Positions 1,231 through 26,545 of a stretch of DNA of 45,895 nt are shown here, piece after piece. The stretch spans positions 1-45,895 of the forward strand of contig JANTGJ010000012.1 of the NCBI GenBank assembly GCA_024762975.1. Direction: 5' to 3'. The notes beneath the pieces are model-generated. The model was given only the letters and a program-made list of their open reading frames with translations. It ran no database searches and was not told where the DNA came from. The stretch's first letter is position 1. Every line of letters begins with the position of its first letter. This DNA is from Candidatus Krumholzibacteriia bacterium (GTDB lineage: Bacteria > Krumholzibacteriota > Krumholzibacteriia > LZORAL124-64-63). A program made the position numbers and the translations under genes.

Positions 1231-2601
1231 ATGGACAGCATCACTCGTAAAATGGCCCGTTTCACGTTGGATCTGCAGTATGACCGGATTCCGGCCGAAT
1301 CGGTCAAGGAGGCCAAGCGATTCCTGCTGGACAGCGTCGGCTGCGCGATGGCCGCGGTGAATAATCCCGACATGGCTGCGATGTACCGTTTCACCGAGAA
1401 GCTGGGGGGGACGGCCGAAGCCACACTGATCGGCAATGGACACCGCACGAACGCGGCGAACGCCGCGCTGATGAACAGCCTGCTGGTGCGTGCGCTGGAT
1501 TACAATGATATCTACTGGGAGCAGGACCCGTCGCATCCGTCGGATATCATCTTCGGCGCGATCAGCCCGGCCGAAGCCCTGAAAAAGGGCGGACGCGACA
1601 CCCTGACGGCAATCCTGATCGCCTACGAACTGGAATTGCGCTGGTGCCTGGCCTGCTTCCCGGGGGTGCGCGAGATCGGTTGGCATCATGCCACCCTGAC
1701 GCAGTTCGTCAGTCCGTTCGTCGCAGGTAGGATCTACGGCCTGGATGAAGACCAGCTGGTCGCCGCCGCGGGCATCAGCGGCAGTTCGCACTATACCGTG
1801 GGCGGCGTCGTGGCCGGCCACCTGACGAATATGAAGAACACGGCTGACCCGCTGGCAACGCAGGCCGGTGTGCTGGCCTGTCTGATGGCTGCCGAGGGCT
1901 ATGAGGGGCCGGTCGAGGTCATCGAAGGCAAGGAGGGCTTCGAACACGTCCTGCCCAACATCGAGCTGAAGCCCGAAATCCTGCTGGAGGGTCTGGGGTC
2001 GAAGTTCCTGATCAACGACTGCGGCTACAAGGCCTTCCCGACCGAAGCGCTGACGCACCAGCCGATGTCCGCGGTGCTGCTGGCGATGCAGAAGAACGGC
2101 CTGGTCGCCGAGGATCTGGCCAAGATCCATATCCAGACCACGGCCCGGGGCGCCGATATCCTGAGTGACCCCTCAAAGTACGACCCGCAGACGAAGGAGA
2201 CGGCGGACCACAGCCTGCCGTACTGCCTGGCGGCGGTGGCCGCCGACGGCGGGGTGTACCCGAACTCGTTCAGCGACGAGAAGCTTTTTGACCCGCGCAT
2301 CCGCGCCCTGCTGGGCAAGATCGAGGTCGTGGCGAATGATGAGATCGACGCCATGTTCCCGGGCACCAAGCGCGCCATTGCCACGCTGACGACGAACGAC
2401 GGGCGAACGTTTACCGAGACCGTCGATCATGCCAAGGGCAGTCCGCAGAACCCGCTCAGCGACGACGAGCTGATCGCGAAGTTCCGCGCCAACTGCGATG
2501 GAGTGCTGGATACCGCGCGTCAGGATGCGATCATCGAGGCGACCTGGGGCTTCGACGAGTTGGGCGATGTGGGCGATTACATGAAGTTGTTGGTGGTCTG
2601 A
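1231..2601 (+). CDS. MmgE/PrpD family protein
   Basis: The 456-aa cytoplasmic protein has the MmgE/PrpD fold family signature throughout: N-terminal helical start (RFTLDLQYDRIPAESVKEAK), LLDSVGCAMA, a middle LDYNDIYW and HPSD stretch, and YKAFPTEALTHQP in the C-terminal half. Family members include 2-methylcitrate dehydratase and cis-aconitate decarboxylase, which act on tricarboxylates; the substrate here cannot be told from sequence. Length is normal for the family (450-500 aa). The start is supported by AAGGGG 7 bases upstream. There is no prpB or prpC neighbour, so a methylcitrate cycle role is not indicated by context. A G7 run lies at 1404-1410 in the coding sequence but the frame is intact. 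It is probably a separate unit from the glucan locus that follows. Confidence 0.88.
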   Translation: MDSITRKMARFTLDLQYDRIPAESVKEAKRFLLDSVGCAMAAVNNPDMAAMYRFTEKLGGTAEATLIGNGHRTNAANAALMNSLLVRALDYNDIYWEQDPSHPSDIIFGAISPAEALKKGGRDTLTAILIAYELELRWCLACFPGVREIGWHHATLTQFVSPFVAGRIYGLDEDQLVAAAGISGSSHYTVGGVVAGHLTNMKNTADPLATQAGVLACLMAAEGYEGPVEVIEGKEGFEHVLPNIELKPEILLEGLGSKFLINDCGYKAFPTEALTHQPMSAVLLAMQKNGLVAEDLAKIHIQTTARGADILSDPSKYDPQTKETADHSLPYCLAAVAADGGVYPNSFSDEKLFDPRIRALLGKIEVVANDEIDAMFPGTKRAIATLTTNDGRTFTETVDHAKGSPQNPLSDDELIAKFRANCDGVLDTARQDAIIEATWGFDELGDVGDYMKLLVV

Positions 2602-2676
2602 CCGAATCCGATTCTGATGCGCCGTCGATCGGCCGTCCTGTTCGGGCGCCGGGCGGCGGCGCATTGCCTTTTTCGG

Positions 2677-2705
2677 TTGCTTTCGACTCGTCCCTCGGGC
2701 ATAAT
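2677..2705 (+). promoter_or_regulatory. Putative promoter of the ABC/GH144 operon, possibly leaderless
   Basis: TTGCTT (2677-2682) and CATAAT (2700-2705) are 17 bases apart, a good sigma70-type pair. The ATG of the GH144 gene is at 2712, so a start site 6-7 bases after the -10 would fall on or beside the initiation codon. No purine-rich ribosome site precedes that ATG (CCGCCC). Together this suggests a leaderless mRNA. Confidence 0.45.
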
Positions 2706-2711
2706 CCGCCC

Positions 2712-4181
2712 ATGAAAACTTTGCTTCGATTTCGACAGCTCACAGCACCGGGTCTGCTCGCAGCATCGGCTCTTTGCTGGCTCTGCGGGGGTGTCGCTGG
2801 CTGCGGCGATACGGCGAGCCAAAGGACGGCCGCTTTTTCTTTGTCTGCCAATGAAACCGCTTTCATTGACAGTTTACAGCACCACACCTTTCGCTTCTTC
2901 TGGGAGCAGTGCGATCCCGTGACCGGCCTGGCGCCCGATCGCGTGCCCAGTCCATCATTCGCCAGCATGGCTGCCACGGGGTTCGCACTGACTGCGTATC
3001 CGGTCGGAGTAGAGCGCGGTGAAGTGACCCGTGAGCAGGCAGCAAGGCGGGTGCTGAAAACTCTCAGATTCCTCTACCAATTGCCCCAGGGTGACGACCC
3101 CCGACACTCTGCAGGCGTGAACGGATTCTACTACCACTTCGTGGATATGCAGACGGGTCTGCGATTTCGGGACGTCGAGCTTTCGACGGTCGATACGGCG
3201 CTTCTGTTGGGCGGCGCCCTGTTCTGCCAGTCGTATTTCGATCGAACCACGGCGGTCGAGGACAGCATCCGGACGATAGCCGAGCAGATGTATCGGCGAG
3301 TGGATTGGCAATGGGCCTCGCCGCGCGCGCCGTTGATCGGCCACGGCTGGTCTCCCGAAAACGGGCACCTCCCGTACGACTGGGGAGGCTACAACGAAGC
3401 CATGCTCGTCTATCTGATGGCGCTGGCATCCCCGACCCATCCCGTGGAGCCGGAGTCGTGGGATGCCTGGACGGCCGGGTATCGCTGGACGGAATTCCAG
3501 GGGCGCGAGCAGATCGCATTCGGTCCGCTATTCGGCCATCAGTACACTCACGTCTGGATCGATCTGAATGGGATCCGGGATCAATTCTGCCGCGAACACG
3601 ATCTTGATTATTTCGAGAACTCGCGGCGTGCCCTGCTGTCGCAACGAGACTATGCGCGGACCAATCCCGGTGCCTGGCGTGGCTACGGTGACCGTCTGTG
3701 GGGACTGACCGCCTGCGATGGACCGGTGCACGGCACGTTCGAGATCGACGGCCGGCAACGGGAGTTTCGGACCTACTGGGCACGTGGTGCTGCATCGGGG
3801 GCCATCCACGATGATGGGACCATCAGTCCCACGGCGGCGGCCGGTTCGCTGCCTTTCGCACCCGAGGCGGTCGTGCCTTTGCTACTGGCCCTGCACGAGG
3901 ACCATGGAGAGTACCTCTATGGGGAATACGGTTTTCTGGACGCCCTGAATCCGACCTTCACCTTGGATGTACCGGTGCAGCATGGGCGAGTGGTACCGGA
4001 CCATGGTTGGTACGACACCGACTACCTGGGCATCGACCAGGGGCCGATCGTGGCCATGATCGAGAACTGGCGAACAGGACTGATTTGGAAGACGCTGAGG
4101 ACCAATCCGCACATTGTTCGAGGTCTGAAGCGCGCCGGGTTCCAGGGCGGTTGGCTGGACTCGGCCGTGGATCAGCCGTGA
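2712..4181 (+). CDS. GH144-type endo-beta-1,2-glucanase lipoprotein (PF10091 glucoamylase-like)
   Basis: I start at ATG 2712, not the ORF-track 2664, because it gives a clean lipoprotein signal ending GVAGC (Cys31), for a 489-aa product. The catalytic (alpha/alpha)6 domain spans about residues 45-485. Hallmarks of the PF10091/GH144 family are FRFFWEQCDPVTGLAPDR, ELSTVDTALL (about 156-165), WGGYNEAMLVYLMAL, HQYTHVWIDL and GIDQGPIVAMIENW. GH144 founders are endo-beta-1,2-glucanases that cut linear beta-1,2-glucan to sophoro-oligosaccharides. Lipidation places it in the periplasm or on the outer membrane. It heads an operon whose next gene overlaps by 4 bases (GTGA). A second GH144 with a different export signal lies at 26546. 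Family assignment is strong; substrate is inferred from family and context. Confidence 0.87.
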   Translation: MKTLLRFRQLTAPGLLAASALCWLCGGVAGCGDTASQRTAAFSLSANETAFIDSLQHHTFRFFWEQCDPVTGLAPDRVPSPSFASMAATGFALTAYPVGVERGEVTREQAARRVLKTLRFLYQLPQGDDPRHSAGVNGFYYHFVDMQTGLRFRDVELSTVDTALLLGGALFCQSYFDRTTAVEDSIRTIAEQMYRRVDWQWASPRAPLIGHGWSPENGHLPYDWGGYNEAMLVYLMALASPTHPVEPESWDAWTAGYRWTEFQGREQIAFGPLFGHQYTHVWIDLNGIRDQFCREHDLDYFENSRRALLSQRDYARTNPGAWRGYGDRLWGLTACDGPVHGTFEIDGRQREFRTYWARGAASGAIHDDGTISPTAAAGSLPFAPEAVVPLLLALHEDHGEYLYGEYGFLDALNPTFTLDVPVQHGRVVPDHGWYDTDYLGIDQGPIVAMIENWRTGLIWKTLRTNPHIVRGLKRAGFQGGWLDSAVDQP

Positions 4182-5482
4182 TTCGCGCGAATGACTGGCG
4201 TGGGCTGTGTGTGGCCGTGATCGGGAGCCTGTTGCTGGGCATCGGAGCCTGCGCGGACGGTGAGCGTGAGTCCATCACGATCCGGTTTTGGGTCATGGGC
4301 CGTGAAGGAGAAATGGTCCAGGAGTTGACGCGCGAGTTCGAAGCACAAAACCCGGGGATTCGCGTCGACGTGCAGCAGATTCCCTGGTCGGCCGCCCACG
4401 AGAAGCTGTTGACCGCCTATGTGGGGCGCGCTACTCCCGACCTGACCCAACTGGGGAATACGTGGGTGCCCGAATTCGCTGCCCTGCGTGCTCTGGCACC
4501 TCTGGATGCGCTGGTGGACGAATCACCACAGATTGACCCAAACGACCATTTTCCAGGCATTTGGGACACGAATGTGCTGGATGGGGAACTCTTTGGTCTG
4601 CCTTGGTACGTCGATACCCGGGTTCTCTTCTACCGGACTGATTTGCTGCGTGGGGCGGGCTATGAATCGATGCCTACCCATTGGTCCGGCTGGCGGGACG
4701 CGTTGCGTGCCGTCACCGACAGGGGCGGGCCGGGTCGGTATGGAATTCTGTTGCCCATCAACGAGTGGCCGCAGCCGGTCATCTTCGGACTGCAGGTGGG
4801 TTCGTCGCTGTTGGCCGATCGGGATACGCGCGGTGTTTTCAGCCAGCCGGCTTTCCGCGAGTCGTTCCGCTTCTACCTGGATCTGTTTCGCGATGGACTG
4901 GCGCCGCCGGTGGCGAACAACGAGGTAGCCAACCTCTACCAGGAATTCGAGCGTGGCACGTTTGCGATGTATATCTCCGGACCGTGGAATCTGGGTGAAT
5001 TTCGTCGCAGGCTGCCGGCCGAACTGCAGCAGGAATGGTCGACCGCGCCGTTGCCGGCACCGGATGGCCAGGAGGGACCGGGCCTTTCGTTGGCCGGTGG
5101 ATCCAGCTTGGTAGTTTTCCGAAGCTCCGAGCATCAGCAAGCGGCATGGCGATTAATCGAGTTTCTGTCACAGCCGGAACAGCAAGTGCGCTTTTTCGAG
5201 CTCACGGGTGACCTGCCGGCGCATCGTTCCGCGTGGAATGATCCGGTCCTGGCCAATGACCCGCAGGCTCGCGCATTCGCCCAGCAACTAGAGCGAGTCG
5301 TGCCGACCCCCAAGATTCCCGAGTGGGAGCAGGTGGCCAACCGCGTATGGGAAGCTGCCGAGCAGGCGATCCATGGCGCTAACGACGTGGACAAAGTGCT
5401 GGCGGAACTGGATCAGGACGTCGACCGGATGCTGGCCAAGCGCCGCTGGCTGATGCAGCAACGCGAAGAGGAAACGCCGTGA
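4178..5482 (+). CDS. ABC sugar transporter substrate-binding lipoprotein
   Basis: The start is GTG 4178, overlapping the preceding TGA; the ORF-track start at 4007 would run inside the GH144 gene. The 434-aa product has a lipoprotein signal (LLLGIGAC) and the family 1 extracellular solute-binding fold: ITIRFWVMGREGEMVQELTR, DLTQLGNTWVPEF, VLFYRTDLL, GTFAMYISGPWNLGEF, and LAGGSSLVVFRSSEHQQAAW. It should bind oligosaccharide in the periplasm and deliver it to the two permeases that follow with 4-base overlaps. Context suggests sophoro-oligosaccharides (beta-1,2-linked glucose), as for the known Listeria beta-1,2-glucooligosaccharide binding proteins; the ligand itself is an inference. Confidence 0.9.
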   Translation: MIRANDWRGLCVAVIGSLLLGIGACADGERESITIRFWVMGREGEMVQELTREFEAQNPGIRVDVQQIPWSAAHEKLLTAYVGRATPDLTQLGNTWVPEFAALRALAPLDALVDESPQIDPNDHFPGIWDTNVLDGELFGLPWYVDTRVLFYRTDLLRGAGYESMPTHWSGWRDALRAVTDRGGPGRYGILLPINEWPQPVIFGLQVGSSLLADRDTRGVFSQPAFRESFRFYLDLFRDGLAPPVANNEVANLYQEFERGTFAMYISGPWNLGEFRRRLPAELQQEWSTAPLPAPDGQEGPGLSLAGGSSLVVFRSSEHQQAAWRLIEFLSQPEQQVRFFELTGDLPAHRSAWNDPVLANDPQARAFAQQLERVVPTPKIPEWEQVANRVWEAAEQAIHGANDVDKVLAELDQDVDRMLAKRRWLMQQREEETP

Positions 5483-6369
5483 GTAGTGGTTTGGCTCGCA
5501 AAAAGGCCCGCGCCGCCTGGTGGTTTCTGACTCCTGCGCTGGTGTTGCTGGCGCTATTCTTTGTTTTGCCGGTCGCGGCGGGGCTGTTGCTCAGTTTGAC
5601 CGATTTCGACATCTATGCCGTCGGAGATCCGTCCGTCGCCCGATTCGTCGGGTTGAAGAACTATGCCCATCTGCTGAGTGACGGGACTTTCTGGCGCGCG
5701 GTGGGCAACACGCTGCAGTTCGTACTCATCGGCGGCCCGTTGTCGCTGGCGGTCTCGTTGGCGGCAGCCTTGCTGCTGAATGAAAAGGCCGTGCGCCTGC
5801 GCGGGCTGTTGCGCACCGTCTACTTTGCTCCGGTGGTCACGACCCTGGTCTCGGTGGCCATCGTTTGGCGATATCTCTATCACCCGCGGTATGGGCTGCT
5901 GAATTTTCTGCTGGGTCAGATCGGAGTCGATCCGATCGACTGGTTGGGCGATCCGAACTGGGCGATGCCGGCCATCATCCTGCTCGCCGTCTGGAAGAAC
6001 TTCGGCTACAACATGCTGATCCTGCTGGCCGGTCTGCAGGTCATTCCGCGCGAATTGTACGAGGCGGCCTCGATCGACGGAGCCGGTCCCTGGCGCCGTT
6101 TTCGTCACATCACCCTGCCGGGACTGGCACCGACCTTCCTGTTTGTTTCGGTCACGACGATGATCGGCTACTTCCAGGTATTCGCCGAACCCTACGTGAT
6201 GACTCAGGGGGGGCCGTTGGGCGCAACCCGCAGCCTGGTGCTCTTTATGTACGAAGAGGGCTTCCGCTGGTGGCGCATGGGGATGGCTTCTGCGGTTGCG
6301 GTACTGCTGCTGGTGATCACCCTGATCGGTACGCTGATCCAGTTGCGCCTGGACCGGAGGGAAGCATGA
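5479..6369 (+). CDS. ABC sugar transporter permease, MalF/UgpA-like
   Basis: The 296-aa integral inner-membrane protein has about six transmembrane segments, beginning with WWFLTPALVLLALFFVLPVAAG. The conserved cytoplasmic EAA loop that docks on the ATPase is clear: EAASIDGAGPWRRFRHITLP (about residues 194-213). It starts at GTG 5479, which overlaps the binding-protein stop (GTGA), and its own stop overlaps the next permease ATG. This is the first of two permeases of a CUT1-type carbohydrate importer. Confidence 0.93.
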   Translation: MSSGLARKKARAAWWFLTPALVLLALFFVLPVAAGLLLSLTDFDIYAVGDPSVARFVGLKNYAHLLSDGTFWRAVGNTLQFVLIGGPLSLAVSLAAALLLNEKAVRLRGLLRTVYFAPVVTTLVSVAIVWRYLYHPRYGLLNFLLGQIGVDPIDWLGDPNWAMPAIILLAVWKNFGYNMLILLAGLQVIPRELYEAASIDGAGPWRRFRHITLPGLAPTFLFVSVTTMIGYFQVFAEPYVMTQGGPLGATRSLVLFMYEEGFRWWRMGMASAVAVLLLVITLIGTLIQLRLDRREA

Positions 6370-7190
6370 TGCGGTTCCGACCGAGATCCGCGCTACTGCA
6401 TCTGGTGCTGTTCGTCGGGGCGTTGGTTACATTGCTGCCCCTGGGTTGGATGGTCGCTGCCGCGTTCATGCAACCGGGAGAGGCAAACTCGCTGCCACCG
6501 CACCTGGTGCCTGCTGATCCGACACTCGAGCATTTTCGGGCCCTGTTCACGCGCCTGGATTTCCTGCGCAATCTGGCCAACAGCGCGATCGTCACTACGC
6601 TGGCGACGCTGCTCTCGGTGCTGGTCAACTCGATGGCGGGCTATGCGTTCGCCAAGTTGCCCTTCCCGGGACGCGAGCGGCTCTTCAAGTCGCTGGCTGC
6701 GGCCCTGGTCGTGCCCGCACAGGTCGGTATGCTACCGCTATTTCTGCTGCTGCGCGAACTGGGGTTGGTCAACACCTATGCCGGCGTACTGGTGCCCTAC
6801 CTGGCCAGCATCTTCGGCATTTTCCTGATCCGGCAATACGCCCTCAGCGTTCCGGACGAATTGCTGGACGCCGCTCGCATCGAGGGTGCTGGCGAGTTCG
6901 CTGTATTCCGCCTCGTGGCCTTGCCGGTGATCAAGCCGATCCTGGTGACGATGGCCGCATTCACTTTCCTGAGCGCCTGGAACGATTTCATGTGGCCGCT
7001 GATCGTGCTGTCCGATAGTTCGATGTACACGCTGCCGGTGGCGCTTGCCAACCTCGTGGGAGAACACGTTCAGGACACCGAGTTGATGATGGCCGGTTCC
7101 CTGCTGACCATCCTGCCGGCGCTGGTCGTGTTCCTGATTTTTCAACGCATCTACGTACAGGGCATCATGTCCGGGGGAGTCAAGGGATGA
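6366..7190 (+). CDS. ABC sugar transporter permease, MalG/UgpE-like
   Basis: I use ATG 6366, overlapping the preceding TGA, in place of the ORF-track 5865 start that lies inside the upstream gene. The 274-aa protein has the usual N-terminal membrane segment followed by five more, and the EAA loop DAARIEGAGEFAVFRLVALP (about 162-181). It ends with the family-typical QRIYVQGIMSGGVKG. It pairs with the upstream permease to form the channel of the sugar importer. No ATP-binding subunit follows; the next gene is a secreted glycosidase-like lipoprotein, so a shared MsmK/UgpC-type ATPase encoded elsewhere is expected. Confidence 0.93.
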   Translation: MMRFRPRSALLHLVLFVGALVTLLPLGWMVAAAFMQPGEANSLPPHLVPADPTLEHFRALFTRLDFLRNLANSAIVTTLATLLSVLVNSMAGYAFAKLPFPGRERLFKSLAAALVVPAQVGMLPLFLLLRELGLVNTYAGVLVPYLASIFGIFLIRQYALSVPDELLDAARIEGAGEFAVFRLVALPVIKPILVTMAAFTFLSAWNDFMWPLIVLSDSSMYTLPVALANLVGEHVQDTELMMAGSLLTILPALVVFLIFQRIYVQGIMSGGVKG

Positions 7191-10100
7191 GGCGGTTGTG
7201 GGTGATGTGGACTGTCGCAGTAGTCGGACTCATGGGGTGTGCTGGAGCATCGCGGACCATGGAAGATCCGGCCCAGTGGTCGGCCCATCCGGCCGACGGC
7301 GTCGAGTTGGCGCTACAGGAGCAGAGCGGTGCCCTGCGTCTGGACTTCCGGTTTTCCGCCGGCGGCTATGCGATCGCGCGTCGTGAGGTGGATCTCGAAC
7401 TGCCGGAGAACTATGCCTTCCGGTTTCGTCTGCGCGGCGATGCACCCGTGAATGATCTCGAGTTCAAACTGGTAGACGCCAGCGGTGAGAACGTGTGGTG
7501 GCACGTGAAGCGCAATCTGGAGTGGCCGACCACGTGGGAGACGGTGCGCATCAAGAAGCGGCAGATCAAGTTTGCCTGGGGACCGGCCGGCGGAGGCGAG
7601 CTGACGCATGTCGCGGCAATCGAGTTTGCGATCACCGCCGGCAGCGGAGGCGAAGGCACAGTATGGATTGACGATCTGGAATTGATCGAACTGCCGGTCG
7701 AGTCGGGACCGCCGCCGGTCCCGGTCGCTCGTGCGAGCAGTTTCGCACCGGGGTACGAAGCAGCGCGGGCATTGGACGGGGATCCGGGCACGAGTTGGCG
7801 GCCGGCGTCCGATGATCTGCAGCCGTGGTTCGAATTGGATTTGCGCGGGGCCCGCGAATTCGGAGCCCTGACCCTCGACTGGGAAGCCGATCGCGGCGCA
7901 TCCCGGTACACGGTCGATGGTTTCCTGGAGGGCAAGTCGCAGCGGCTGGTTTCCGTGCAGGGAGGCAATGGCGGCGTGGACGATCTGTATTTGCCCGAGT
8001 CCGAGGCGGAGGTCCTGCGTGTTGCGATTCCGGCCACCGTCGGTCTGGCCGAGATTCGTCTGCAGCCGCTCGAGTACGCTGCGACGCGGGAAGCATTCTT
8101 CATGAATCTGGCTCGTCGCGCCGAGCGCGGGCTGTATCCGCGCGGCTTCCTGGATGAGCCGACTGCCTGGACAGTGGTTGGTGTTGATGGCGATACCCGG
8201 GAAGGGTTGTTGGGCGCGGACGGCGCGTTGGAAGCCGGACCGGGCGGTTTTACGATCGAACCCTTTCTGGAGTCCGGCGACCGGCTATTGACGTGGAACG
8301 ATGCGGTGAAAACGACACGGTTGGTCGATGGTGATTTACCGCTGCCGGTGGTCACATGGAACGTCGATCCCTGGAACCTGGAAGTGCAGGCGACGGGAGT
8401 CGGCAAGCCCGGTAGCAGTTCGGTGATGGGCTCCTATATCGTGCGAAACACGGGCCAGGACCCCCTGCAGGGGATGCTCTGGCTGACGATCCGTCCTTTC
8501 CAGGTCAATCCGCCGGTGCAGTTCCTCAACGTTCTGGGCGGAACGTCGAAGATCGCGACGATCGCCCGGGATGGCGATCTGGTACTCGTCAACGGCAAGC
8601 CCGGTGTCGTTGCAATGGACCGCCCCGACGCGTGGGGAGCTTCGACCTATGCAGGTGGCAGTATTGTCGGACATCTCGTTCGCGGGGATTTACCGGAGCG
8701 ATCTGCGGTGGACGATCCGTTCGAGGCGGCTTCGGCCGCGATGGGGTATCGCTTGGCTCTGGAGCCGGGCCAGTCCCGCCGGATCGAGATCGTACTGCCC
8801 TTGCATGAAAACGCGCCCGACGCTGAATCCATCGATGGAATCGCGGCTCAGCGTGCGGCCCGTGACTACTGGCGGACGAAGGCCGACCGCGTGACGATTG
8901 AGGGTCCTCCCGCAGCCCGGCAGGCGATCGAGACGCTGAAGGCGCAACTCGGTTGGATTCTGGTCAACCGGGCCGCCGCAGGCATCCAGCCGGGTACCCG
9001 CTCCTATGCGCGCTCGTGGATTCGCGACGGTACGCTGACCAGTGTGGCTTTGCTGCGCCTGGGATGTTTCGAGGAGGCGCGAGACTTCCTGCTGTGGTAT
9101 GCGCCACATCAGTATGAGAATGGCAAAATTCCCTGTGTCGTGGACTGGCGCGGCGCCGACCCGGTGCCGGAGCACGACTCGACTGGCCAGTTCATCTACC
9201 TGGTGAGGGAATACCTGAGGTATACCGGTGACCTGGCGGTCGCGGAACAGATGTGGCCGCGCGTGGTGCGGGGCGTGGAGTATCTCGAATCGCTGCTCGC
9301 GCAGCGGCGGTCTGCCGGGTACGCGACACCGGACCAGCGCCGCTTTTACGGGATCCTGCCACCATCGATCAGTCATGAAGGCTACGCGGCCAAACCGATG
9401 CACTCGTATTGGGATGACTTCTTCGCGCTGCGCGGGTTCAAAGATGCGGTCCAACTGGCCGAACGGCTGGGAAAACCCACTGCCGGTTTGATGGCGATTC
9501 GTGACCGGTTCGCGGCTGATCTGTCGGCCTCGCTGGAGGCTTCGCTGATGTTCCATGACATCGACTACGTGCCCGGTTGCGCCGACCTGGGTGATTTCGA
9601 TGCAACCTCCACCACCGTGGCGCTGGATCCCGCTGCAGCTGGCAACCTGCTGCCCGAAGGATCGTTGCAAGCAACCTTCGAACGCTATTGGGAGTTCTTT
9701 GCCGGTCGTCGCGATGGCGATCCCTGGCGGGCATTTACACCGTATGAGATCCGTACGATCGGTACCTTTGTGCGCCTGGGTTGGCGCGAACGCGCGTACG
9801 AAGCTTTGGAATTCTTTCTGGCACACCGCGTCCCCAGCGGGTGGCGACAGTGGCCGGAAGTCGTGGCCTCGGATACCACGCGGGCCTGGTTTGTCGGAGA
9901 CATGCCCCACACCTGGGTCGGATCGGACTACGTTCGAAGTTTCCTGGATCTGTTGGTCTATGAGGATCGCGATGCCGGCGATACGGCAACGGCACTGGTT
10001 CTGGCCGCGGGTCTGCCCGCGGCATGGCTGGAAGGGGAGGGATTTCGCGTCGATGGCCTACCCACGCCCTGGGGGACGTTGGGGTACCGGATCTGGAAGT

Positions 10101-10279
10101 GCCCGGAGGGTGTCCGCATGCAGATCGATGCTGGTGTTCAGCCACCGGGAGGATTGCGCATCGACGCGCCGATTCGGCCCGTTGGGGTGCTGTTGAACGG
10201 AAAACCCGCCTCGCTGGACGATGCCGGTCGCATTCGAGTCGATCGTGTGCCGGCCCAGTTGCTCTGGCCGTCCCGCTAG
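7187..10279 (+). CDS. Discoidin-domain six-hairpin glycosidase-like lipoprotein, family unassigned
   Basis: The 1030-aa protein has a lipoprotein signal (VGLMGC, Cys about 18). Order of parts: a beta-sandwich carbohydrate-binding-like domain (about 25-165, ending GTVWIDDLELIEL), an F5/8 type C discoidin domain (about 175-300; LDGDPGTSWRPASDDLQP), a further beta-sandwich (about 330-575), and an (alpha/alpha)6-barrel region (about 600-930) with RSYARSWIRDGTLTS, PEHDSTGQFIYLVREYL, MHSYWDDFFALRGF and WRQWPEVVASD. The barrel resembles amylo-alpha-glucosidase / six-hairpin glycosidases, but I cannot place it in a named GH family. Acidic residues in the RDG, EHDSTGQ, WDD and WPEV motifs are candidate catalytic groups. 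The ATG overlaps the permease stop. A periplasmic or surface role in trimming beta-1,2-glucan or its side groups is inferred from position. Confidence 0.8.
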   Translation: MRRLWVMWTVAVVGLMGCAGASRTMEDPAQWSAHPADGVELALQEQSGALRLDFRFSAGGYAIARREVDLELPENYAFRFRLRGDAPVNDLEFKLVDASGENVWWHVKRNLEWPTTWETVRIKKRQIKFAWGPAGGGELTHVAAIEFAITAGSGGEGTVWIDDLELIELPVESGPPPVPVARASSFAPGYEAARALDGDPGTSWRPASDDLQPWFELDLRGAREFGALTLDWEADRGASRYTVDGFLEGKSQRLVSVQGGNGGVDDLYLPESEAEVLRVAIPATVGLAEIRLQPLEYAATREAFFMNLARRAERGLYPRGFLDEPTAWTVVGVDGDTREGLLGADGALEAGPGGFTIEPFLESGDRLLTWNDAVKTTRLVDGDLPLPVVTWNVDPWNLEVQATGVGKPGSSSVMGSYIVRNTGQDPLQGMLWLTIRPFQVNPPVQFLNVLGGTSKIATIARDGDLVLVNGKPGVVAMDRPDAWGASTYAGGSIVGHLVRGDLPERSAVDDPFEAASAAMGYRLALEPGQSRRIEIVLPLHENAPDAESIDGIAAQRAARDYWRTKADRVTIEGPPAARQAIETLKAQLGWILVNRAAAGIQPGTRSYARSWIRDGTLTSVALLRLGCFEEARDFLLWYAPHQYENGKIPCVVDWRGADPVPEHDSTGQFIYLVREYLRYTGDLAVAEQMWPRVVRGVEYLESLLAQRRSAGYATPDQRRFYGILPPSISHEGYAAKPMHSYWDDFFALRGFKDAVQLAERLGKPTAGLMAIRDRFAADLSASLEASLMFHDIDYVPGCADLGDFDATSTTVALDPAAAGNLLPEGSLQATFERYWEFFAGRRDGDPWRAFTPYEIRTIGTFVRLGWRERAYEALEFFLAHRVPSGWRQWPEVVASDTTRAWFVGDMPHTWVGSDYVRSFLDLLVYEDRDAGDTATALVLAAGLPAAWLEGEGFRVDGLPTPWGTLGYRIWKCPEGVRMQIDAGVQPPGGLRIDAPIRPVGVLLNGKPASLDDAGRIRVDRVPAQLLWPSR

Positions 10280-10980: not shown

Positions 10981-12336
10981 TTACCCCTCCTGGTCGAGGC
11001 GGCCGCCCGCCGATTCGATGATCTCTCGGTACAAATGACCGCTGTCTTTGATCGTTCGTTCCTGCGTTTCGAAGTTCACGCGGATCAGACCCATTCGCTT
11101 GCTGAAGCCGCAGGCCCATTCCAGGTTGTCCAGCAGGGACCAGACGAAGTATCCCCGCAGGTCCACTCCTTGAGCGATCGCTTCACGCGAAGCGCGCAGA
11201 TGTTCGAGTAGATAAGCTGCGCGCCGGTCATCGCGCACACGTCCATCGGAGTCGGGCGCGGGATCGTCGAAGGCGGCCCCATTCTCGGTGATGTAGATCG
11301 CTGGGTTTCCGTACCTCTGTTTCATCCAGACCAGAGTTTGAAGCAGACTCTCCGCCCGGACCTCCCAGCCCAGTTCTGTGTATTCCGCGCCGGGTTGGCG
11401 CACCTGTGCCGCCGGCACGGGGCTGGCCTGCGTTTCAGCTCGGTTCACTGAGCGCGTGTAATAGTTCAAGCCGATGAAATCGAGGGGCTGAGCGATCAGT
11501 GAAAAATCCTCGTCATCAAACCGGGGCCAATTCTCACCGAAGATCTCAGGCATTTCGGTCGGGTAAGAGCCTCGCAGTAGCGGGTCCAGGTATTGCCGAT
11601 TCATGTACGCCTCTGCCAGGCGGGTTGCGTGTAGATCTTCCGGCGTGTCGCTGGCCGCATCCTTGGGCTCGATGTTCACCACGATTCCGATCTGACCGTC
11701 GGACAGGGAGCGGTAGCGCCGGACGGCCTCGCCGTGGGCGCGCAACAGATTGTGGCTGGCCAGAGGCGCCAGCGAAAGGTCCTGCTTCCCGGGGGCATGG
11801 ACGCCGTGCACGTAGCCGGCGTCGACGATGACCCAGGGTTCATTCAGCGTGGTCCAGCGCCCTACTCGATCAGCCAGTCGGCGCCAGACGATCTCGGCGT
11901 AGTCGGCGAACCAGTCCGCGCTGTCGCGATTCGCCCAGCCGCCCTGTTCGTCCAGCTTCGCCGGCAAATCCCAGTGATAGAGAGTAGGCACCGGCTCGAT
12001 GCCGGCGGCGAGCAATCCATCGACCAGGCGCTCGTAGAAATCGAGTCCGTGCTCATTGATGGCACCCGTCCCCTCGGGCTGGATCCGGTTCCAGGCGAGG
12101 CTGAATCGGTAGGCGTTCAATCCGAGCTTCTGCATGTACCCGATGTCCTCGCGCCAGCGCTGATAATGGTCGCAGGCGACATCGCCGGTATCCCCGCCGG
12201 CGATTCGTCCTGGCTGCTGCGAGAAAAGATGCCAATTGCTCGGGCCTGCACCGTCGCTCAACGGCGAACCCTCGATCTGATACGAGGACGTGGCGGCGCC
12301 CCACAGGAAGTCGTTCGGAAAGGAACTGCCGCTCAT
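10981..12336 (-). CDS. GH1 beta-glucosidase, cytoplasmic
   Basis: The start is ATG 12336, overlapping the GH94 stop (ATGA), preceded by GAGGAG; the ORF-track extension to 12564 is the same frame read through the GH94 3' end. The 451-aa product begins FPNDFLWGAATSSYQIEGS and carries WTTLNEPWV with the acid/base Glu166, and ITENGAA with the nucleophile Glu351. There is no signal peptide, so it acts in the cytoplasm. GH1 enzymes hydrolyse beta-glucosides; here the likely substrate is sophorose or short sophoro-oligosaccharides left by the GH94 phosphorylase. Linkage specificity is an inference from the operon. Confidence 0.93.
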   Translation of the reverse strand: MSGSSFPNDFLWGAATSSYQIEGSPLSDGAGPSNWHLFSQQPGRIAGGDTGDVACDHYQRWREDIGYMQKLGLNAYRFSLAWNRIQPEGTGAINEHGLDFYERLVDGLLAAGIEPVPTLYHWDLPAKLDEQGGWANRDSADWFADYAEIVWRRLADRVGRWTTLNEPWVIVDAGYVHGVHAPGKQDLSLAPLASHNLLRAHGEAVRRYRSLSDGQIGIVVNIEPKDAASDTPEDLHATRLAEAYMNRQYLDPLLRGSYPTEMPEIFGENWPRFDDEDFSLIAQPLDFIGLNYYTRSVNRAETQASPVPAAQVRQPGAEYTELGWEVRAESLLQTLVWMKQRYGNPAIYITENGAAFDDPAPDSDGRVRDDRRAAYLLEHLRASREAIAQGVDLRGYFVWSLLDNLEWACGFSKRMGLIRVNFETQERTIKDSGHLYREIIESAGGRLDQEG

Positions 12337-15300
12337 GGTGACTCCTCGGGTCCCAGCGTGATTCGGGCTTGGTGGATGCGTCCGTCGCGCACCAGGGGTA
12401 GGCGCGCTGGTCCATGGGGGGGGGGCAGTACTTGACTGTCCCATTCGATCGAGATCACTCGTGCGGAGCAGAGTTGGGGATTGATGACTTCGATGTCGTA
12501 CCGAGTCTCCGGTCGTGTGCCGACCTCGCGATCGGGAGTCGACAGCAGCCCGGGAACTCGCCATGTGATCGAATAGCTCGGCCAGTCGTCCGGCACGCAG
12601 GGGGCCACGACGAGTTCGTCACCCTCTTGACGCAGGCCGAGGATTGATTCGAGCGCAACGCGGAGCATCCAGCCCGAAGAACCGGTATACCAGGTCCATC
12701 CGCCGCGTCCGATATGGGGCTCGGCGCCGTAGACATCGGCGGCAACGACGTACGGTTCGACCTGATACCGCTCGACGGCTTCGGCATCGCGGGTATGGCG
12801 CACCGGATTGATCATGGTCAGCAATCGTGCTGCGACGTTGCGGCGGCCCAACTCGGCCATGGCACGCACCGCCCAGAGCGCTGCGTGGGTATACTGCCCT
12901 CCATTCTCGCGCACACCGGCCACGTAGCCCTTGATGTAACCCGGGTCATGCGGCGTGTCGATGAATGGCGGCGTCAGCAGTCGGACCAAGCCGTTCTTCT
13001 CGTCGATCAGATGCTTCTGTACGGCATCCATGACCTGGGCTGCTCGCCGTGGTGATGCGGCACCGGACAGGACCGACCAGGACTGTGCCAGGGCATCGAT
13101 GGCGCACTCCTTATTCTCCCACGAACCGAGCGGTGCGCCATTGTCATAGTAACCGCGACGATACCAGTCGCCGTCCCACCCGGTGTCGTTGAGTGTGTGA
13201 ATCATCTCGTCGCGATAGGTGCGGTACCGATCTGCCCGTTCGGATTGTCCACGGTCCAGGCAGAACGGCAGAAAGCCGTCGATGATCTTGACCAGGAAGA
13301 AGCCCATCCACACGCTTTCGCCGCGCCCTTCACGTCCGACGCGGTTCATACCGTCGTTCCAGTCGCCGGTGCCGAATAGCGGCAAGCCGTGAGCGCCGCG
13401 AACCAGGGATCGATCCAGGGCCCGGCAGCAGTGGTCGTACAGGGTGCCGCTCTCGCCGGACGGCTGCGCCTGCAGGAAAACCTCGTCCTGGCCTTCCTCC
13501 AGTTGCGCCGCCGTCAGGTAGGGGCGCACTTCTTCCAGGATCTCCCGGTCGCCAGTGGCAGAGACGTATTCGGCGGTCGCCCATGGGAGCCAGAGCAGGT
13601 CGTCGGCGAAGCGGGTGCGAATTCCGCGGTCCAGCGGTGGATGCCACCAGTGCAATACATCGCCCTCGACGAACTGGTGTCCGGCGTGCAAGAGGATCTG
13701 ATCGCGCACGAGCTTGGGCCACAGTGGCAGTAGCGACAGGGAATCCTGCAATTGATCGCGATAGCCGTAGGCTCCACCCGACTGGTACAAGGCCGATCGC
13801 CCGTGCAAGCGACACGCGAGCGTCTGGTACCCGAGCCAACCGTTGACCATCAGGTCCAATTCGCGGACCGGAGTTTGGATCTGGATTCGGTCCAACTGGT
13901 CACGCCACGTATCGCGTGTCGATCGCCACGCTTCATCGCAGGCGCCGGGGCGAGTGAATTCCTGGATCAGTTCGCAGACCCGGTCGCGATTCTCTTCCGC
14001 AGCCAGCAGAACCCAAAACTCCTGCGTTTGTTGCGGCTCCAACTGGAATTCGGTCTGGAGGGCGAGGCACGGATCGAGGCCCGCACCGGTGCGTCCGTCC
14101 AGAGGACCTGCGTTGGGTGTGCAGTCGATTGGTGTACCGGCGCCGCCGGTGAAGCAGGTCGCGTCGCCGGTGTAGGTGAACGAATTGAGTTTCTGTTCCG
14201 CAACCAGGGTTGCGGCGGCCACCGCACCCTGGAACGGGCTGGTACGGCAACTGCGGGCGAGCAATGCATTGGTGTTGCCATCGAATTCGGTGACGACGTA
14301 GCGTGCGTCGTTGGCGACGGATTCGCCCAGGACGAGTTGGTGGACTGAAATGAGGGATAGATCGCGTCGTTGCTGACCCGGGTTGGTTACCCGGATTCGG
14401 GTCAGACGCACGGGGCGGGTCCGGTCAACACAGGTGAGAGTCTGGACCTCCAGGCCATTACCCTCTCGCTGCCAGCGAGTGTAGCCCTGGCCGTGCCGTA
14501 CCTGGTAGTCACCGCCTCCGGGAGCGGGCCCGGGCTGGCAGGAAAATTGGCCGCCAGTGGTTTCGTCGCGCAGGAACAGTGCCTCGCCGTGCGGGTCGAG
14601 CAATGGATCGTTCGGCCAGGGGGTGAGTCGGTTTTCGCGGCTGTTTCCGAACCAGGTCGTGCCCGCGCCGGTTTCACTGACCAGGCACCCGAATCGGTCG
14701 TTGGCCATCACATTCGTCCACGGGCGCGGCGGCAGGTGCACACCGCAACCGGCGGAAGGCACTTCGATGGCATACTCGCACCCATTCCCAGTGAACCCGC
14801 CCCAACCGTTGTGGAACTCGATCTCATCGCTCAACTTCGGTTCAGTGGTCTTCGTTTCATCCCGCATCTCGATCGGCGCCACGAGGTTGGGGGCCGGCCA
14901 CTGGATCGACTCGAGCGGGTGCTTGCCATCGAGGTACAGATCGGCCGCCAGGCGAAGCAGGTTCCGGTCGCCGGAGGCGAGTCCGCTCAGGCGCACGACG
15001 TTCTGAGCGGGGGCTGCCCCGGAATTCGGACAATCATCGTCGATGATGGTCAACTGGATCGGCAATCCGAGCGACTGCCAGGAACGATGTAGTTTCTCCA
15101 GCAGCGAAACCGCCTCTGGTTCCGCCTCCACCACGACGAGCGGATATCGTCGGTCGATCGCCCATTCGGCCAGTCGTTGCGGATCGAAGGTTCCGACCTC
15201 AAGTTCCGGCATCTGCCGACGCAGGCTTTGCTCACGCCGAAGGACGGCACCGGCGAGTTCTTCGGCCGCTTGCTGCTCATCAACCGAAATTCCGATTCCG

Positions 15301-16199
15301 GCCATGCGTTGCTCGGCGCATGCGCTTGCGCTCCTGAATGCGCGATCGACTTCTTCTGGGCCGGTCAGGGCACTGATGAGTTCGGGAATTTCATCCGGGT
15401 CGGTTGCGGCTCCCAGCAGGAACGTGCAACTGATCAATCCGCCAGGCTTCAGTTCAAAGGCACGCCGCAGCGAAACAACGGGATCGAGGACGTTTCCGAC
15501 CGTTCCGGACAAGGGCTTGGAACCGGTCATGGCCAGCAGATCACCGGGTGCTCGGCCGCGACCGAAGAAGCGGGCTCGGTCCGTTTCGAACTCCACAGGC
15601 CCCGACTCCAGCAGTGAGTGAACAAGTACGGGCGTCAGCTCGTGCGGGGAGCGGGAGCGCCGGCCTACGCAGAGGGTCCGTTGATCCGGCAGCAGCGATG
15701 ATTGGAGGAACAACTTGGAGAATGCGGGGTGGGCGGCGTGGGCCGCCCTTTCATTCAGAACCACCTCGGCCAGCGAGGTGACGTCCAGTCGGCGGGTGCA
15801 GGTGTCCAGATTCCGGATCGTGATCCGGTGAAGTTGTGCCGATCGACCCGGAACAACACAAATTTCCTGCTGGACCCGCAGTTCGCACCCGATCTGTTCG
15901 GAAACGAAGTTGCCCGGCTCCCAGCGCGTGTCGGGAGTCTGGAAATCTCTACTGGTAGCCCTGCCGGCGGGCCACCACAGACTCCGATCCAGATCGCGAA
16001 TGAAGAATCGCAGGCCGGTCGCTGCGGCGCCTTCCCAGCAAGTCAGAGCGAGGTCGCCAGCGGTGGAAAATCCGAGTCCGGAGCCGTCAGTCACAGCGAT
16101 GTAACTTTCTGGATCCGAGCCAATTGAGCTGCTGAGGATGGCGCCATTGGCGGAGGCAGCGCTCCTCAGGGGAAAGGGGTGAAAGGGGGACTTCGTCAT
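12333..16199 (-). CDS. GH94 phosphorylase-like protein, probable 1,2-beta-oligoglucan phosphorylase
   Basis: The 1288-aa protein lacks a signal peptide. The start is supported by AAAGGA upstream of ATG 16199. Its layout follows the C-terminal half of cyclic beta-1,2-glucan synthases: a first beta-sandwich (about 20-300; TDGSGLGFSTAGDLALT, AAHAAHPAFSKLF), an alpha/beta linker (about 320-440), a second beta-sandwich (about 455-740), then the GH94 (alpha/alpha)6 barrel with LYQSGGAYGYRDQLQD, GTGDWNDGMNRVG (general acid probably Asp949) and ENGGQYTHAA. The membrane GT84 synthase part is absent. Known GH94 relatives of this shape are 1,2-beta-oligoglucan phosphorylases, which release glucose-1-phosphate. 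Cyclic-glucan trimming is an alternative. It overlaps the GH1 gene by 4 bases and contains a C10 tract near residue 1260. Confidence 0.87.
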   Translation of the reverse strand: MTKSPFHPFPLRSAASANGAILSSSIGSDPESYIAVTDGSGLGFSTAGDLALTCWEGAAATGLRFFIRDLDRSLWWPAGRATSRDFQTPDTRWEPGNFVSEQIGCELRVQQEICVVPGRSAQLHRITIRNLDTCTRRLDVTSLAEVVLNERAAHAAHPAFSKLFLQSSLLPDQRTLCVGRRSRSPHELTPVLVHSLLESGPVEFETDRARFFGRGRAPGDLLAMTGSKPLSGTVGNVLDPVVSLRRAFELKPGGLISCTFLLGAATDPDEIPELISALTGPEEVDRAFRSASACAEQRMAGIGISVDEQQAAEELAGAVLRREQSLRRQMPELEVGTFDPQRLAEWAIDRRYPLVVVEAEPEAVSLLEKLHRSWQSLGLPIQLTIIDDDCPNSGAAPAQNVVRLSGLASGDRNLLRLAADLYLDGKHPLESIQWPAPNLVAPIEMRDETKTTEPKLSDEIEFHNGWGGFTGNGCEYAIEVPSAGCGVHLPPRPWTNVMANDRFGCLVSETGAGTTWFGNSRENRLTPWPNDPLLDPHGEALFLRDETTGGQFSCQPGPAPGGGDYQVRHGQGYTRWQREGNGLEVQTLTCVDRTRPVRLTRIRVTNPGQQRRDLSLISVHQLVLGESVANDARYVVTEFDGNTNALLARSCRTSPFQGAVAAATLVAEQKLNSFTYTGDATCFTGGAGTPIDCTPNAGPLDGRTGAGLDPCLALQTEFQLEPQQTQEFWVLLAAEENRDRVCELIQEFTRPGACDEAWRSTRDTWRDQLDRIQIQTPVRELDLMVNGWLGYQTLACRLHGRSALYQSGGAYGYRDQLQDSLSLLPLWPKLVRDQILLHAGHQFVEGDVLHWWHPPLDRGIRTRFADDLLWLPWATAEYVSATGDREILEEVRPYLTAAQLEEGQDEVFLQAQPSGESGTLYDHCCRALDRSLVRGAHGLPLFGTGDWNDGMNRVGREGRGESVWMGFFLVKIIDGFLPFCLDRGQSERADRYRTYRDEMIHTLNDTGWDGDWYRRGYYDNGAPLGSWENKECAIDALAQSWSVLSGAASPRRAAQVMDAVQKHLIDEKNGLVRLLTPPFIDTPHDPGYIKGYVAGVRENGGQYTHAALWAVRAMAELGRRNVAARLLTMINPVRHTRDAEAVERYQVEPYVVAADVYGAEPHIGRGGWTWYTGSSGWMLRVALESILGLRQEGDELVVAPCVPDDWPSYSITWRVPGLLSTPDREVGTRPETRYDIEVINPQLCSARVISIEWDSQVLPPPHGPARLPLVRDGRIHQARITLGPEESP
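12416..12425 (-). repeat. C10 homopolymer in the GH94 3' end
   Basis: Ten consecutive G on the plus strand (C10 on the coding strand) encode the PPP of VLPPPH near residue 1260 of the GH94 protein. The GH1 reading frame, which is -1 relative to GH94, stays open through this tract. A one-base insertion or a -1 slip would therefore fuse GH94 to GH1. It could also be a site of sequencing error. Confidence 0.9.
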
Positions 16200-25100: not shown

Positions 25101-25465
25101 TCTTCGAGTTCGCAACCCGTGGCGAGTACGTCGATCAGGACGCGGCTCGGGCCGGTTTCGAGCCCTACGTCGTGCCCAATCCCTACCTGGGATCGGCCAG
25201 CTTCGAGCCGGAGCGTTATGCGGTGTCCGGACGCGGCGAAAGGCGCATCGAGTTCCGCGGACTTCCAGCCAGCTGCGAGATTCGCATCTTCAATGTCCTG
25301 GGCGAACTGGTGCAGACTCTCCGCCACGATGGCGGAACTGATGGATTTGTGGCCTGGGATCTTAGGACGAAGGACCTGCTCGATGTCGCGCCGGGCCTGT
25401 ACATCTTCCATGTCGACGGCGGACCGGCGGGTAAGGCCACCGGCAAGTTCGCCATCGTGAAATGA
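22124..25465 (+). CDS. Large secreted Fn3 protein with sorting tail
   Basis: ATG 22124 overlaps the receptor stop and is preceded by GGGGAGGGGG; the product is 1113 aa. A membrane-spanning signal lies at about 25-45 (ISLGLVAALILPAAVAIG). The first 580 residues are a large Asp- and aromatic-rich region of unknown fold, containing a calcium-loop-like GLDNDEDGIVDERRDGG near residue 360. A fibronectin type III domain follows (about 590-710; AYYYAVTAYDRGSEAFNFYP), then beta-rich segments and a C-terminal FlgD-Ig/type IX-like tail (EIRIFNVLGELVQTLRHD, GLYIFHVDG). It lies between a TonB receptor and a PorV-like gene. A structural or glucan-capturing surface role is likely; no enzyme motif is seen. 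The 821-aa minus-strand ORF is its shadow. Confidence 0.82.
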   Translation: MDRNHTCTRRARNVSNCERPTNRGRGITWISLGLVAALILPAAVAIGDVITPVPQDQRGREDAERAGQHDANNMRTLFWNYGMVGDYPRDPGNVDLSVFHSVEVPKGSGMNYGDGVTPFVLAKITQVDGSEAYIMETGFRERQGTSPYFNRVMRFEPRPGYFQPDPALNPGRSPAMSNDPRTWPDYWPDRLDDPSDPGWSGSWNGYFGKQIVADQESYVVLDDDYYDAWNFYPDSRDSTRNGLGLRIEVRGFQWANPQARNVIFWHYDITNEGTTDYDDNIVFGLYMDSGVGGSAFSCDQIYESDDDNAYFAREFDGQPINLVYTWDNGGHGRDLSGSCSTTGYLGYAYMETPGKPTDGLDNDEDGIVDERRDGGPGTFLVGMDNIRAYVESNYDMTRFESVYGPLEDMPAYRAELWWTGDEDLDWTIDNHDVGADGLADTGDEGEGDGIPTAGEPNFDDTDLNESDQIGLTGFKMNRILPGYGNPDQTTDNIVFFTGNENWPEKLYEQFSDPDPNERFDEPLANNYNIGFLFASGPFRLAAGQTERFSLALAYGADLTELANNTRTVQQIYNANYRFATPPKTPTLTAETGDGFVQLSWDDVAENGADPVTGEFDFEGYRIYRSTDPDFRDPQVITTGTGSGPLGNGKPIAQFDLKNGVSGFSDLSIEGVSYYLGTDSGLTHTWTDNTVTNGQAYYYAVTAYDRGSEAFNFYPSENAITPSRTARGGLVLPSNVVEVRPNPKVQGFVAATTDTAAHVSGVGSGSVGIQVVNSSLVPDDHLFRLTFETPSPDSLRARSYALTDATTNEILFETGLDFLGEGIGPVGSGLLPVVRTATEVQVDPETTGFLSGSLTDAIFLVSYESSVLPINRLRPGFPEDITIFFSDDVESTSIASGIQFPTPMPARFEIIMHTDEGDVPLDFLFRDRADSGEDPDGTLSRTDELIRIVTYLPESPDVPQGTWTIALAQESANPPAAGDAWRLSLKRPFGSDDVFEFATRGEYVDQDAARAGFEPYVVPNPYLGSASFEPERYAVSGRGERRIEFRGLPASCEIRIFNVLGELVQTLRHDGGTDGFVAWDLRTKDLLDVAPGLYIFHVDGGPAGKATGKFAIVK

Positions 25466-26499: not shown

Positions 26500-26545
26500 G
26501 ACAATGGACCCGCGGAGAACGTGGAAGTCGGAGTGGAGAGATACG

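What the first reader, a model, noticed from the sequence alone, without database searches (positions are those of the whole stretch)
7187..10279. 1030-aa discoidin six-hairpin lipoprotein as a candidate new glycosidase family
The barrel motifs (SWIRDG, EHDSTGQ, YWDDFF, WPEV) suggest an (alpha/alpha)6 glycosidase, but they do not fit GH94, GH144, GH1 or another family I can name. It is the last gene of the importer operon and is lipidated, so it probably processes the imported glucan just before transport. It may open cyclic glucans, act from chain ends or remove branches.
Basis: partly seen in the sequence, partly recalled or inferred. Interest (0 to 1): 0.72.

Follow-up and report, generated by a model that had tools for sequence, protein, structure and literature searches.

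The report
Overlooked glycosidase in bacterial β-1,2-glucan uptake
This is a real, widespread but unnamed exported sugar-cutting enzyme, distantly related to glucoamylases (family GH15), that many unrelated bacteria carry directly beside their machinery for digesting and importing β-1,2-glucan; it may remove the α-linked glucose bond that the known enzymes of that pathway are not expected to cut, but its substrate is untested.

Summary
The 1030-aa gene is real. It is the last of five genes overlapping by 4 nt: GH144 β-1,2-glucanase, sugar-binding protein, two permeases, this protein. Relatives (286 found, best 80 examined) span many phyla; 49 of 58 with enough flank have GH144 directly upstream. 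Profile comparison puts it nearest GH15 (97.2%, E 4e-11), as close as two accepted GH15 subgroups are to each other; GH94 is second (88%), GH144 nil. Pfam and NCBIfam assign no convincing GH family; NCBI calls it 'discoidin domain-containing protein'. Best reading: an exported inverting GH15-like glycosidase of the β-1,2-glucan pathway, most likely cutting an α-glucosidic bond such as the α-1,6 link of α-1,6-cyclised β-1,2-glucans. Pathway role firm, α-specificity moderate, substrate speculative. No paper found in the searched library describes it.

The parts
7187..10279 (+). Exported GH15-like glycosidase (1030 aa), last gene of the operon
   Evidence: ORF; AlphaFold model pLDDT 91.9; profile match to GH15 97.2 %, E 4.1e-11
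7187..7240 (+). Lipoprotein signal peptide, lipobox LMGC, predicted lipidated Cys18
   Evidence: sequence; homologue comparison
7256..7702 (+). CBM11-like beta-sandwich, residues 24-172, strongly conserved (K94, D97, W117, AWGP 130-133)
   Evidence: own model pLDDT 95.7; CBM11 VIA Z 17.0, 2.5 A over 144 residues; invariants
7724..8065 (+). Discoidin / F5-8 type C (CBM32-like) domain, residues 180-293
   Evidence: PF00754 E 1.6e-8; PDB glucanase/chitosanase discoidin domains E 2e-6
8114..8806 (+). beta-supersandwich, residues about 310-540
   Evidence: model secondary structure; aligned with GH15 multidomain enzymes 9ju0, 1lf6 and 1ug9
8909..9955 (+). (alpha/alpha)6 catalytic barrel, residues about 575-923
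9014..9031 (+). SWIRDG 610-615: R613-D614, equivalent of the GH15 -1 subsite Arg-Asp
   Evidence: profile alignment; R 153/155, D 153/155
9365..9385 (+). SISHEGY 727-733: E731, proposed general acid in the alpha5-alpha6 loop
   Evidence: spacing to helix alpha6 matches the GH15 acid Glu within one residue, by hand; E in 153 of 155, 2 gaps
9851..9862 (+). WPEV 889-892: E891, proposed general base in the alpha11-alpha12 loop
   Evidence: aligned with the GH15 base Glu; E in 149 of 149
2664..4181 (+). GH144 beta-1,2-glucanase, first gene of the overlapping operon
   Evidence: PF10091 E 2.1e-80; best PDB hit XcSGL XCC2207 (8xul) E 4.3e-162
4178..5482 (+). Sugar-binding protein of the ABC importer
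   Evidence: ABC transporter sugar-binding protein 3uor E 1.7e-138; Lin1841 beta-1,2-glucooligosaccharide-binding protein E 1e-74
5479..6369 (+). ABC permease A
   Evidence: PF00528
6366..7190 (+). ABC permease B
   Evidence: PF00528; start
12333..16199 (-). GH94 phosphorylase-like protein, probably of the same pathway
10981..12564 (-). GH1 beta-glucosidase, probably of the same pathway
   Evidence: PF00232 E 5.6e-154; near the gene in many relatives

Best explanation
An exported (here lipid-anchored) inverting glycosidase with a GH15-like catalytic barrel and two carbohydrate-binding modules, working in the periplasm beside a GH144 beta-1,2-glucanase and a beta-1,2-glucooligosaccharide ABC importer. 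SHOWN computationally: the fold, the operon, the conserved linkage with GH144, nearest kinship to GH15 among the families compared, and invariant E731, E891 and R613-D614. INFERRED: E731 protonates the glycosidic oxygen, E891 activates water, and R613-D614 holds the glucosyl unit in subsite -1. INFERRED and less sure: the bond cut is an alpha-glucosidic one, as in characterised GH15 enzymes. The most fitting alpha-bond in this pathway is the single alpha-1,6 link of alpha-1,6-cyclised beta-1,2-glucans (Xanthomonas, Ralstonia, Cereibacter), cut either in the ring or, more likely for an exo-acting pocket enzyme, after GH144 has opened the ring and the alpha-linked glucose is terminal. That would leave pure beta-1,2-oligosaccharides for import, then GH94 phosphorolysis and GH1/GH3 hydrolysis.
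For: Operon and linkage: (49 of 58 flanked loci have GH144 directly upstream, 41 of 58 the full GH144-SBP-permease order, 56 of 58 GH144 somewhere near). [quoted passage not shown] elsewhere the neighbours include SOGP, GH35, GH3 and SusD or TonB receptor plus GH3. GH15 kinship: all 52 members match TIGR01577, best 1.2e-13; GH15 profile 97.2 %, E 4.1e-11, against GH94 87.8, GH78 28.7, GH65 7.3, GH133 6.7, GH144 0.3 %; two accepted GH15 subgroups score 96.5 % against each other; a reversed GH15 control scores 0.1 %. Structure: isomaltose glucohydrolase 5z3b Z 28.4 (3.1 A over 315), dextran dextrinase Z 27.2, glucodextranase Z 25.7. GH15 catalytic Glu sit in the alpha5-alpha6 and alpha11-alpha12 loops (PMC12446779), where E731 and E891 lie. 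Alpha-1,6-cyclised beta-1,2-glucans exist (PMC11228985, PMC11842490). Xanthomonas sacchari has the same operon order. OpgG/OpgD (MdoG) is in 49 of 57 gene-bearing and 5 of 63 other relatives of a Luteimonas genome.
Against: GH94, a beta-specific family, is the second relative (87.8-88.6 %) and heads the Foldseek list, so kinship does not settle alpha against beta. GH65 ties with GH15 in VIA Z (28.4). The small glucodextranase-type GH15 set alone does not match (1.9 %). The E731 assignment rests on a loop that hhalign leaves gapped and where residues 732-735 have pLDDT under 50. GH15 enzymes are exo-acting, so direct ring opening would be unusual. The MdoG association is confounded by phylogeny, and no genome searched in the window's own class has MdoG (0 of 78). 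No coordinates were available to inspect pocket or cleft. Nothing was assayed.
Confidence: 0.42

Rival explanations
1. A beta-specific inverting enzyme of the beta-1,2-glucan pathway: it trims glucose or sophorose from chain ends, or removes beta-1,6 glucose branches, with a GH94-like -1 site but water as nucleophile.
For: Second-best profile match is GH94 over 528-667 columns; Foldseek top hits are GH94 cellobiose phosphorylases; every known partner in the operon acts on beta-linked glucan.
Against: GH15 scores higher on the same test (97.2 against 87.8 %). GH94 phosphorylases need no base carboxylate, whereas E891 is invariant at the GH15 base position. Beta-1,2 bonds are already served by GH144, GH94, GH1 and GH3 in the same clusters.
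Confidence: 0.3
2. A transglycosylase of this fold (like dextran dextrinase, a retaining relative of GH15) that rearranges beta-1,2-glucan derivatives rather than hydrolysing them.
For: Dextran dextrinase (9ju0) is among the best structural matches and keeps the GH15 Glu pair with a closer nucleophile (PMC12446779).
Against: Nothing in the operon calls for such a step; a side-chain distance would decide and cannot be read here.
Confidence: 0.1
3. The operon is really for ordinary alpha-glucans or alpha-glucosides (maltose, trehalose), and the protein is a plain periplasmic alpha-glucosidase.
For: GH15 kinship; the closest solved binding protein, 3uor, is deposited as a general ABC sugar-binding protein; GH144 genes are annotated 'glucoamylase family'.
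Against: The upstream enzyme is closest to a proven beta-1,2-glucanase; the binding protein is close to a beta-1,2-glucooligosaccharide binder; SOGP, GH35 and GH94 partners recur.
Confidence: 0.11
4. A catalytically dead, carbohydrate-binding accessory protein of the importer.
For: Two binding modules; export and, in near relatives, lipid anchoring.
Against: E731, E891, R613, D614, D664 and D743 are practically invariant from Bacteroidota to Xanthomonadales and in paralogues.
Confidence: 0.05

Closest known systems
GH15 (glucoamylase, glucodextranase, isomaltose glucohydrolase KfIG 5z3a-f, trehalase, dextran dextrinase 9ju0)
   Same: Supersandwich plus (alpha/alpha)6 barrel; W-x-R-D motif; Glu equivalents in the alpha5-alpha6 and alpha11-alpha12 loops; profile similarity at the within-family level.
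   Different: Window protein has no PF00723 hit at E 0.01; SISHEGY...HSYWDD replaces the GH15 WE signature; CBM11-like and discoidin modules in front; encoded in beta-1,2-glucan operons.
GH94 (cellobiose phosphorylase, beta-1,2-oligoglucan phosphorylase, CGS C-terminal domain)
   Same: Supersandwich and barrel, second-best profile and top Foldseek hits.
   Different: Invariant base-like E891, which phosphorylases do not need; exported; no Pfam GH94 model among the hits of 52 members.
GH133 / GDE_C amylo-alpha-1,6-glucosidase
   Same: PF06202 match, E 1.5e-4, 0.3 bits above the gathering score; structural match 7vma Z 26.4.
   Different: Only 94 residues matched; profile comparison 6.7 %.
GH78 / GH65 six-hairpin enzymes
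   Same: Same barrel; GH65 alpha-1,2-glucosidase 7fe3 Z 28.4; PF17389 matches 43 of 52 members, best 1.5e-7.
   Different: Profile comparison 28.7 % and 7.3 %.
SGL clan GH-S (GH144, GH162, GH192-194)
   Same: (alpha/alpha)6 barrel and same pathway.
   Different: No profile similarity to GH144 (0.3 %); extra beta domains. The other SGL-clan families were not compared by profile (clan described in PMC12102758).
CBM11 and CBM32-like modules
   Same: N-terminal domain CBM11-like, Z 17.0; discoidin domain like those of glucanase/chitosanase.
   Different: 15-16 % identity to CBM11; ligand unknown.

Membership tests
GH15 | Sequence match to the curated GH15 model PF00723 | tested here: not met
   No hit for the window protein at E 0.01 or for its catalytic part at E 1; 21 of 52 relatives hit weakly, best 1.9e-4
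GH15 | Profile similarity at the level found between GH15 subgroups | tested here: met
   97.2 %, E 4.1e-11 against 96.5 %, E 8.8e-10 between two GH15 subgroups
GH15 | (alpha/alpha)6 barrel preceded by supersandwich | tested here: met
   Model and VIA alignments of 542-553 residues to 1lf6, 1ug9 and 9ju0
GH15 | General base Glu in the alpha11-alpha12 loop | tested here: met
   E891 aligned with the GH15 Glu, 149 of 149 copies; its role as base is inferred
GH15 | General acid Glu in the alpha5-alpha6 loop | tested here: inconclusive
   E731 lies in that loop with the right spacing and is invariant, but hhalign gaps the loop and pLDDT is low at 732-735
GH15 | Inverting alpha-glucoside hydrolysis | not testable with these tools
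   needs enzymology
GH94 | Match to the GH94 Pfam models | tested here: not met
   Not among the families hit by 52 members at E 1, although profile comparison gives 87.8 %
GH133 | GDE_C match over the catalytic domain | tested here: not met
   About 93 of 367 profile positions, 21.3 bits against a cut-off of 21; profile comparison 6.7 %
GH144 / SGL clan | Profile similarity to GH144 | tested here: not met
   0.3 %
Unassigned / new GH family | No assignment by curated libraries or annotation | tested here: inconclusive
   Pfam, NCBIfam and NCBI product names give no convincing GH family; PF06202 is just over its cut-off and CAZy/dbCAN could not be searched

The most novel reading that the evidence does not exclude
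The founding group of a new GH family (or a new GH15 subfamily) whose members remove the alpha-1,6 bond of alpha-1,6-cyclised beta-1,2-glucans (bacterial periplasmic glucans), a step for which no enzyme was found in the papers searched.
Probability: 0.27. Interest if true: 0.72.

Novelty: new variant of a known kind. Interest (0 to 1): 0.5.

Why it matters
β-1,2-glucans are periplasmic glucans linked to osmoregulation, symbiosis and plant disease, and enzymes for them have been found only recently. This one is unannotated yet present in hundreds of genomes, including about half of the Luteimonas relatives searched and a Xanthomonas, next to characterised β-1,2-glucan genes. Knowing its reaction would complete the uptake pathway, could show how α-1,6-cyclised glucans are dismantled, and would give a specific tool enzyme for analysing them. 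Two named residues make it immediately testable.

Tried and rejected
GH144-like function: no profile similarity. GH133 on the strength of the Pfam GDE_C hit: short and barely above threshold. YWDDFF as the catalytic acid: D743 is invariant but D744 is N in 32 of 156 copies, and the motif sits at the start of helix α6 rather than in the loop. EHDSTGQ as catalytic: conserved, but it lies between α3 and α4, not at either GH15 catalytic loop. Sequence search of the PDB with the catalytic profile gave only weak GH15 isomaltose glucohydrolase and MmpH hits, E 0.45 and above. Clue from paralogues: their neighbourhoods are mixed and not informative. Literature searches on Xanthomonas mal genes, discoidin, GH15 with β-1,2-glucan and OPG catabolism found no description of the protein; one search was spoilt because 'malE' matches 'male'. 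The main text of the Ignavibacterium album cluster paper does not mention such a gene; its supplement was not readable here. A sequence tree across the GH families was not attempted: too divergent to trust. GH37, GH63, GH125 and GH116 were not compared by profile.
Full report
OBSERVATION. The ORF at 7187-10279 is uninterrupted, 1030 aa, and begins with a lipoprotein signal ending LMGC18. It overlaps the upstream permease gene by 4 nt, as do the three junctions before it (4178/4181, 5479/5482, 6366/6369), so GH144 - binding protein - permease A - permease B - this gene is one coupled unit. Pfam finds a discoidin domain (PF00754, E 1.6e-8) and a short GDE_C match (E 1.5e-4, 21.3 bits against a cut-off of 21). 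NCBIfam gives only a sub-threshold GH15 match, TIGR01577, E 2e-4.

FAMILY. 286 stretches in genome contigs encode relatives; the best 80 are 35-62 % identical in their best segment and come from records titled Krumholzibacteriota, Gemmatimonadota, Acidobacteriota, Bacteroidota, Ignavibacteria, KSB1, Phycisphaerales and Proteobacteria, among others. In the window's phylum, 23 of 80 genomes have a match; among relatives of a Luteimonas genome, 57 of 120. The window's organism is probably a Krumholzibacteriota-like bacterium, judged only by its nearest named relatives (inference). NCBI names plasmid-borne homologues 'discoidin domain-containing protein'.

STRUCTURE. AlphaFold with 52 sequences gives pLDDT 91.9: signal peptide, β-sandwich 24-172, discoidin domain about 180-293, supersandwich about 310-540, (α/α)6 barrel about 575-923, C-terminal β domain. 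The catalytic part matches GH94, dextran dextrinase and glucodextranase in Foldseek. In VIA the leaders are GH65 α-1,2-glucosidase 7fe3 (Z 28.4, 4.5 Å/553) and GH15 isomaltose glucohydrolase 5z3b (Z 28.4, 3.1 Å/315), which are tied.

RELATIONSHIP. All 52 family members hit the GH15 model TIGR01577 (best 1.2e-13), 43 hit GH78 (best 1.5e-7), 21 hit PF00723 (best 1.9e-4) and 19 hit GDE_C. Profile-profile comparison with alignments made here: GH15 97.2 % (E 4.1e-11), GH94 87.8 %, GH78 28.7 %, GH65 7.3 %, GH133 6.7 %, GH144 0.3 %. Controls: reversed GH15 0.1 %; two accepted GH15 subgroups against each other 96.5 %, E 8.8e-10; GH65 against GH15 0.4 %. The protein is therefore as near to GH15 as the two most divergent GH15 subgroups used here are to one another. 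Most of this signal comes from the trehalase-type GH15 (92.5 %); the small glucodextranase-type set alone does not match (1.9 %). Whether to call it GH15 or a new family is left open; CAZy could not be consulted.

ACTIVE SITE. In the GH15 alignments SWIRDG falls on the W-x-R-D of the GH15 -1 subsite and E891 (WPEV) on the GH15 general base. GH15 catalytic Glu lie in the α5-α6 and α11-α12 loops (PMC12446779). E891 is in the α11-α12 loop. In the α5-α6 loop the invariant acid is E731 of SISHEGY, one residue further from the conserved 'LA' of helix α6 than the GH15 acid is (hand alignment). E731 is found in 153 of 155 copies (2 gaps), E891 in 149 of 149, R613 and D614 in 153 of 155, D743 in 156 of 156; D744 is N in 32 (some genomes are represented by more than one locus, so these are copies, not species). 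A paralogous group at about 36 % identity lacking the CBM11-like domain keeps the same residues.

CONTEXT. Of 58 loci with at least 5.5 kb upstream, 49 have GH144 directly upstream on the same strand, 41 have GH144, binding protein and permease, and 56 have GH144 somewhere near. The window's GH144 is closest to XcSGL, XCC2207 (8xul, E 4.3e-162), a shown β-1,2-glucanase (PMC12102758). The binding protein matches 3uor (1.7e-138) and Lin1841 (1e-74); Lin1841 binds Sop3-5 (PMC12369401). The GH94 gene matches the phosphorylase domain of cyclic β-1,2-glucan synthase (E 5e-231). In a pooled scan of neighbours from Bacteroidota and other loci without the ABC operon, SOGP, GH94, GH35, GH3, GH2 and SusD recur. 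A Croceibacterium plasmid has TonB receptor - GH144 - this gene with a GH3 nearby. Xanthomonas sacchari R1 has LacI - TonB - GH144 - binding protein - permeases - this gene (in pieces), then edd, pgl, glk and zwf.

MECHANISM. Shown computationally: fold, operon, linkage, nearest kinship, invariant residues. Inferred: inverting hydrolysis with E731 as acid and E891 as base. Less certain: an α-bond, as in characterised GH15 enzymes; the GH94 kinship leaves β possible. Speculative: the α-1,6 link of α-1,6-cyclised β-1,2-glucans, which Xanthomonas, Ralstonia and Cereibacter make (PMC11842490, PMC11228985). In Luteimonas relatives the gene goes with MdoG/OpgG (49 of 57 against 5 of 63; Fisher p 2e-19, uncorrected for phylogeny), but no genome searched in the window's class has MdoG (0 of 78), so there it would be used for scavenging. 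A plausible order is: GH144 cuts β-1,2 bonds, this enzyme removes α-linked glucose as it becomes terminal, the importer takes β-1,2-oligomers, and GH94 and GH1 finish.

VERDICT.

Noticed in passing
window 26504-28222 and 25462-26499: A second GH144 protein ends in a type IX secretion sorting domain (PF18962, E 2.8e-9) next to a weak PorV-like gene (E 0.043), in a genome whose nearest relatives are not Bacteroidota.
   Followed up: no
window 22106-25465: 1119-aa protein without any Pfam hit, after a TonB receptor; homologues 58-72 % identical occur in L007, L016, L057 and L064, which also hold a TonB-receptor match. Possibly a partner of the receptor.
   Followed up: partly
[quoted passage not shown]
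   Followed up: no
L158, L159, L161-L164, L167, L168: Paralogous subfamily (about 36 % identity, no CBM11-like domain) in Luteimonas relatives and methanotroph plasmids, mostly not beside GH144; on the Methylosinus plasmid it lies two genes from an annotated GH15 gene.
   Followed up: partly
L166 9001-11790 (Xanthomonas sacchari R1): The homologue matches in three pieces and has no annotated gene, so it may be broken in this record; intact copies exist elsewhere.
   Followed up: no
window 1231-2601: MmgE/PrpD-family gene directly upstream of the GH144 operon, unexpected in a glucan cluster.
   Followed up: no
residues 24-172 of the protein (window 7256-7702): The CBM11-like domain carries a highly conserved patch (NVWW, IKKR, FAWGP), which may mean that it takes part in the active site or contacts a partner rather than only binding glucan.
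   Followed up: partly
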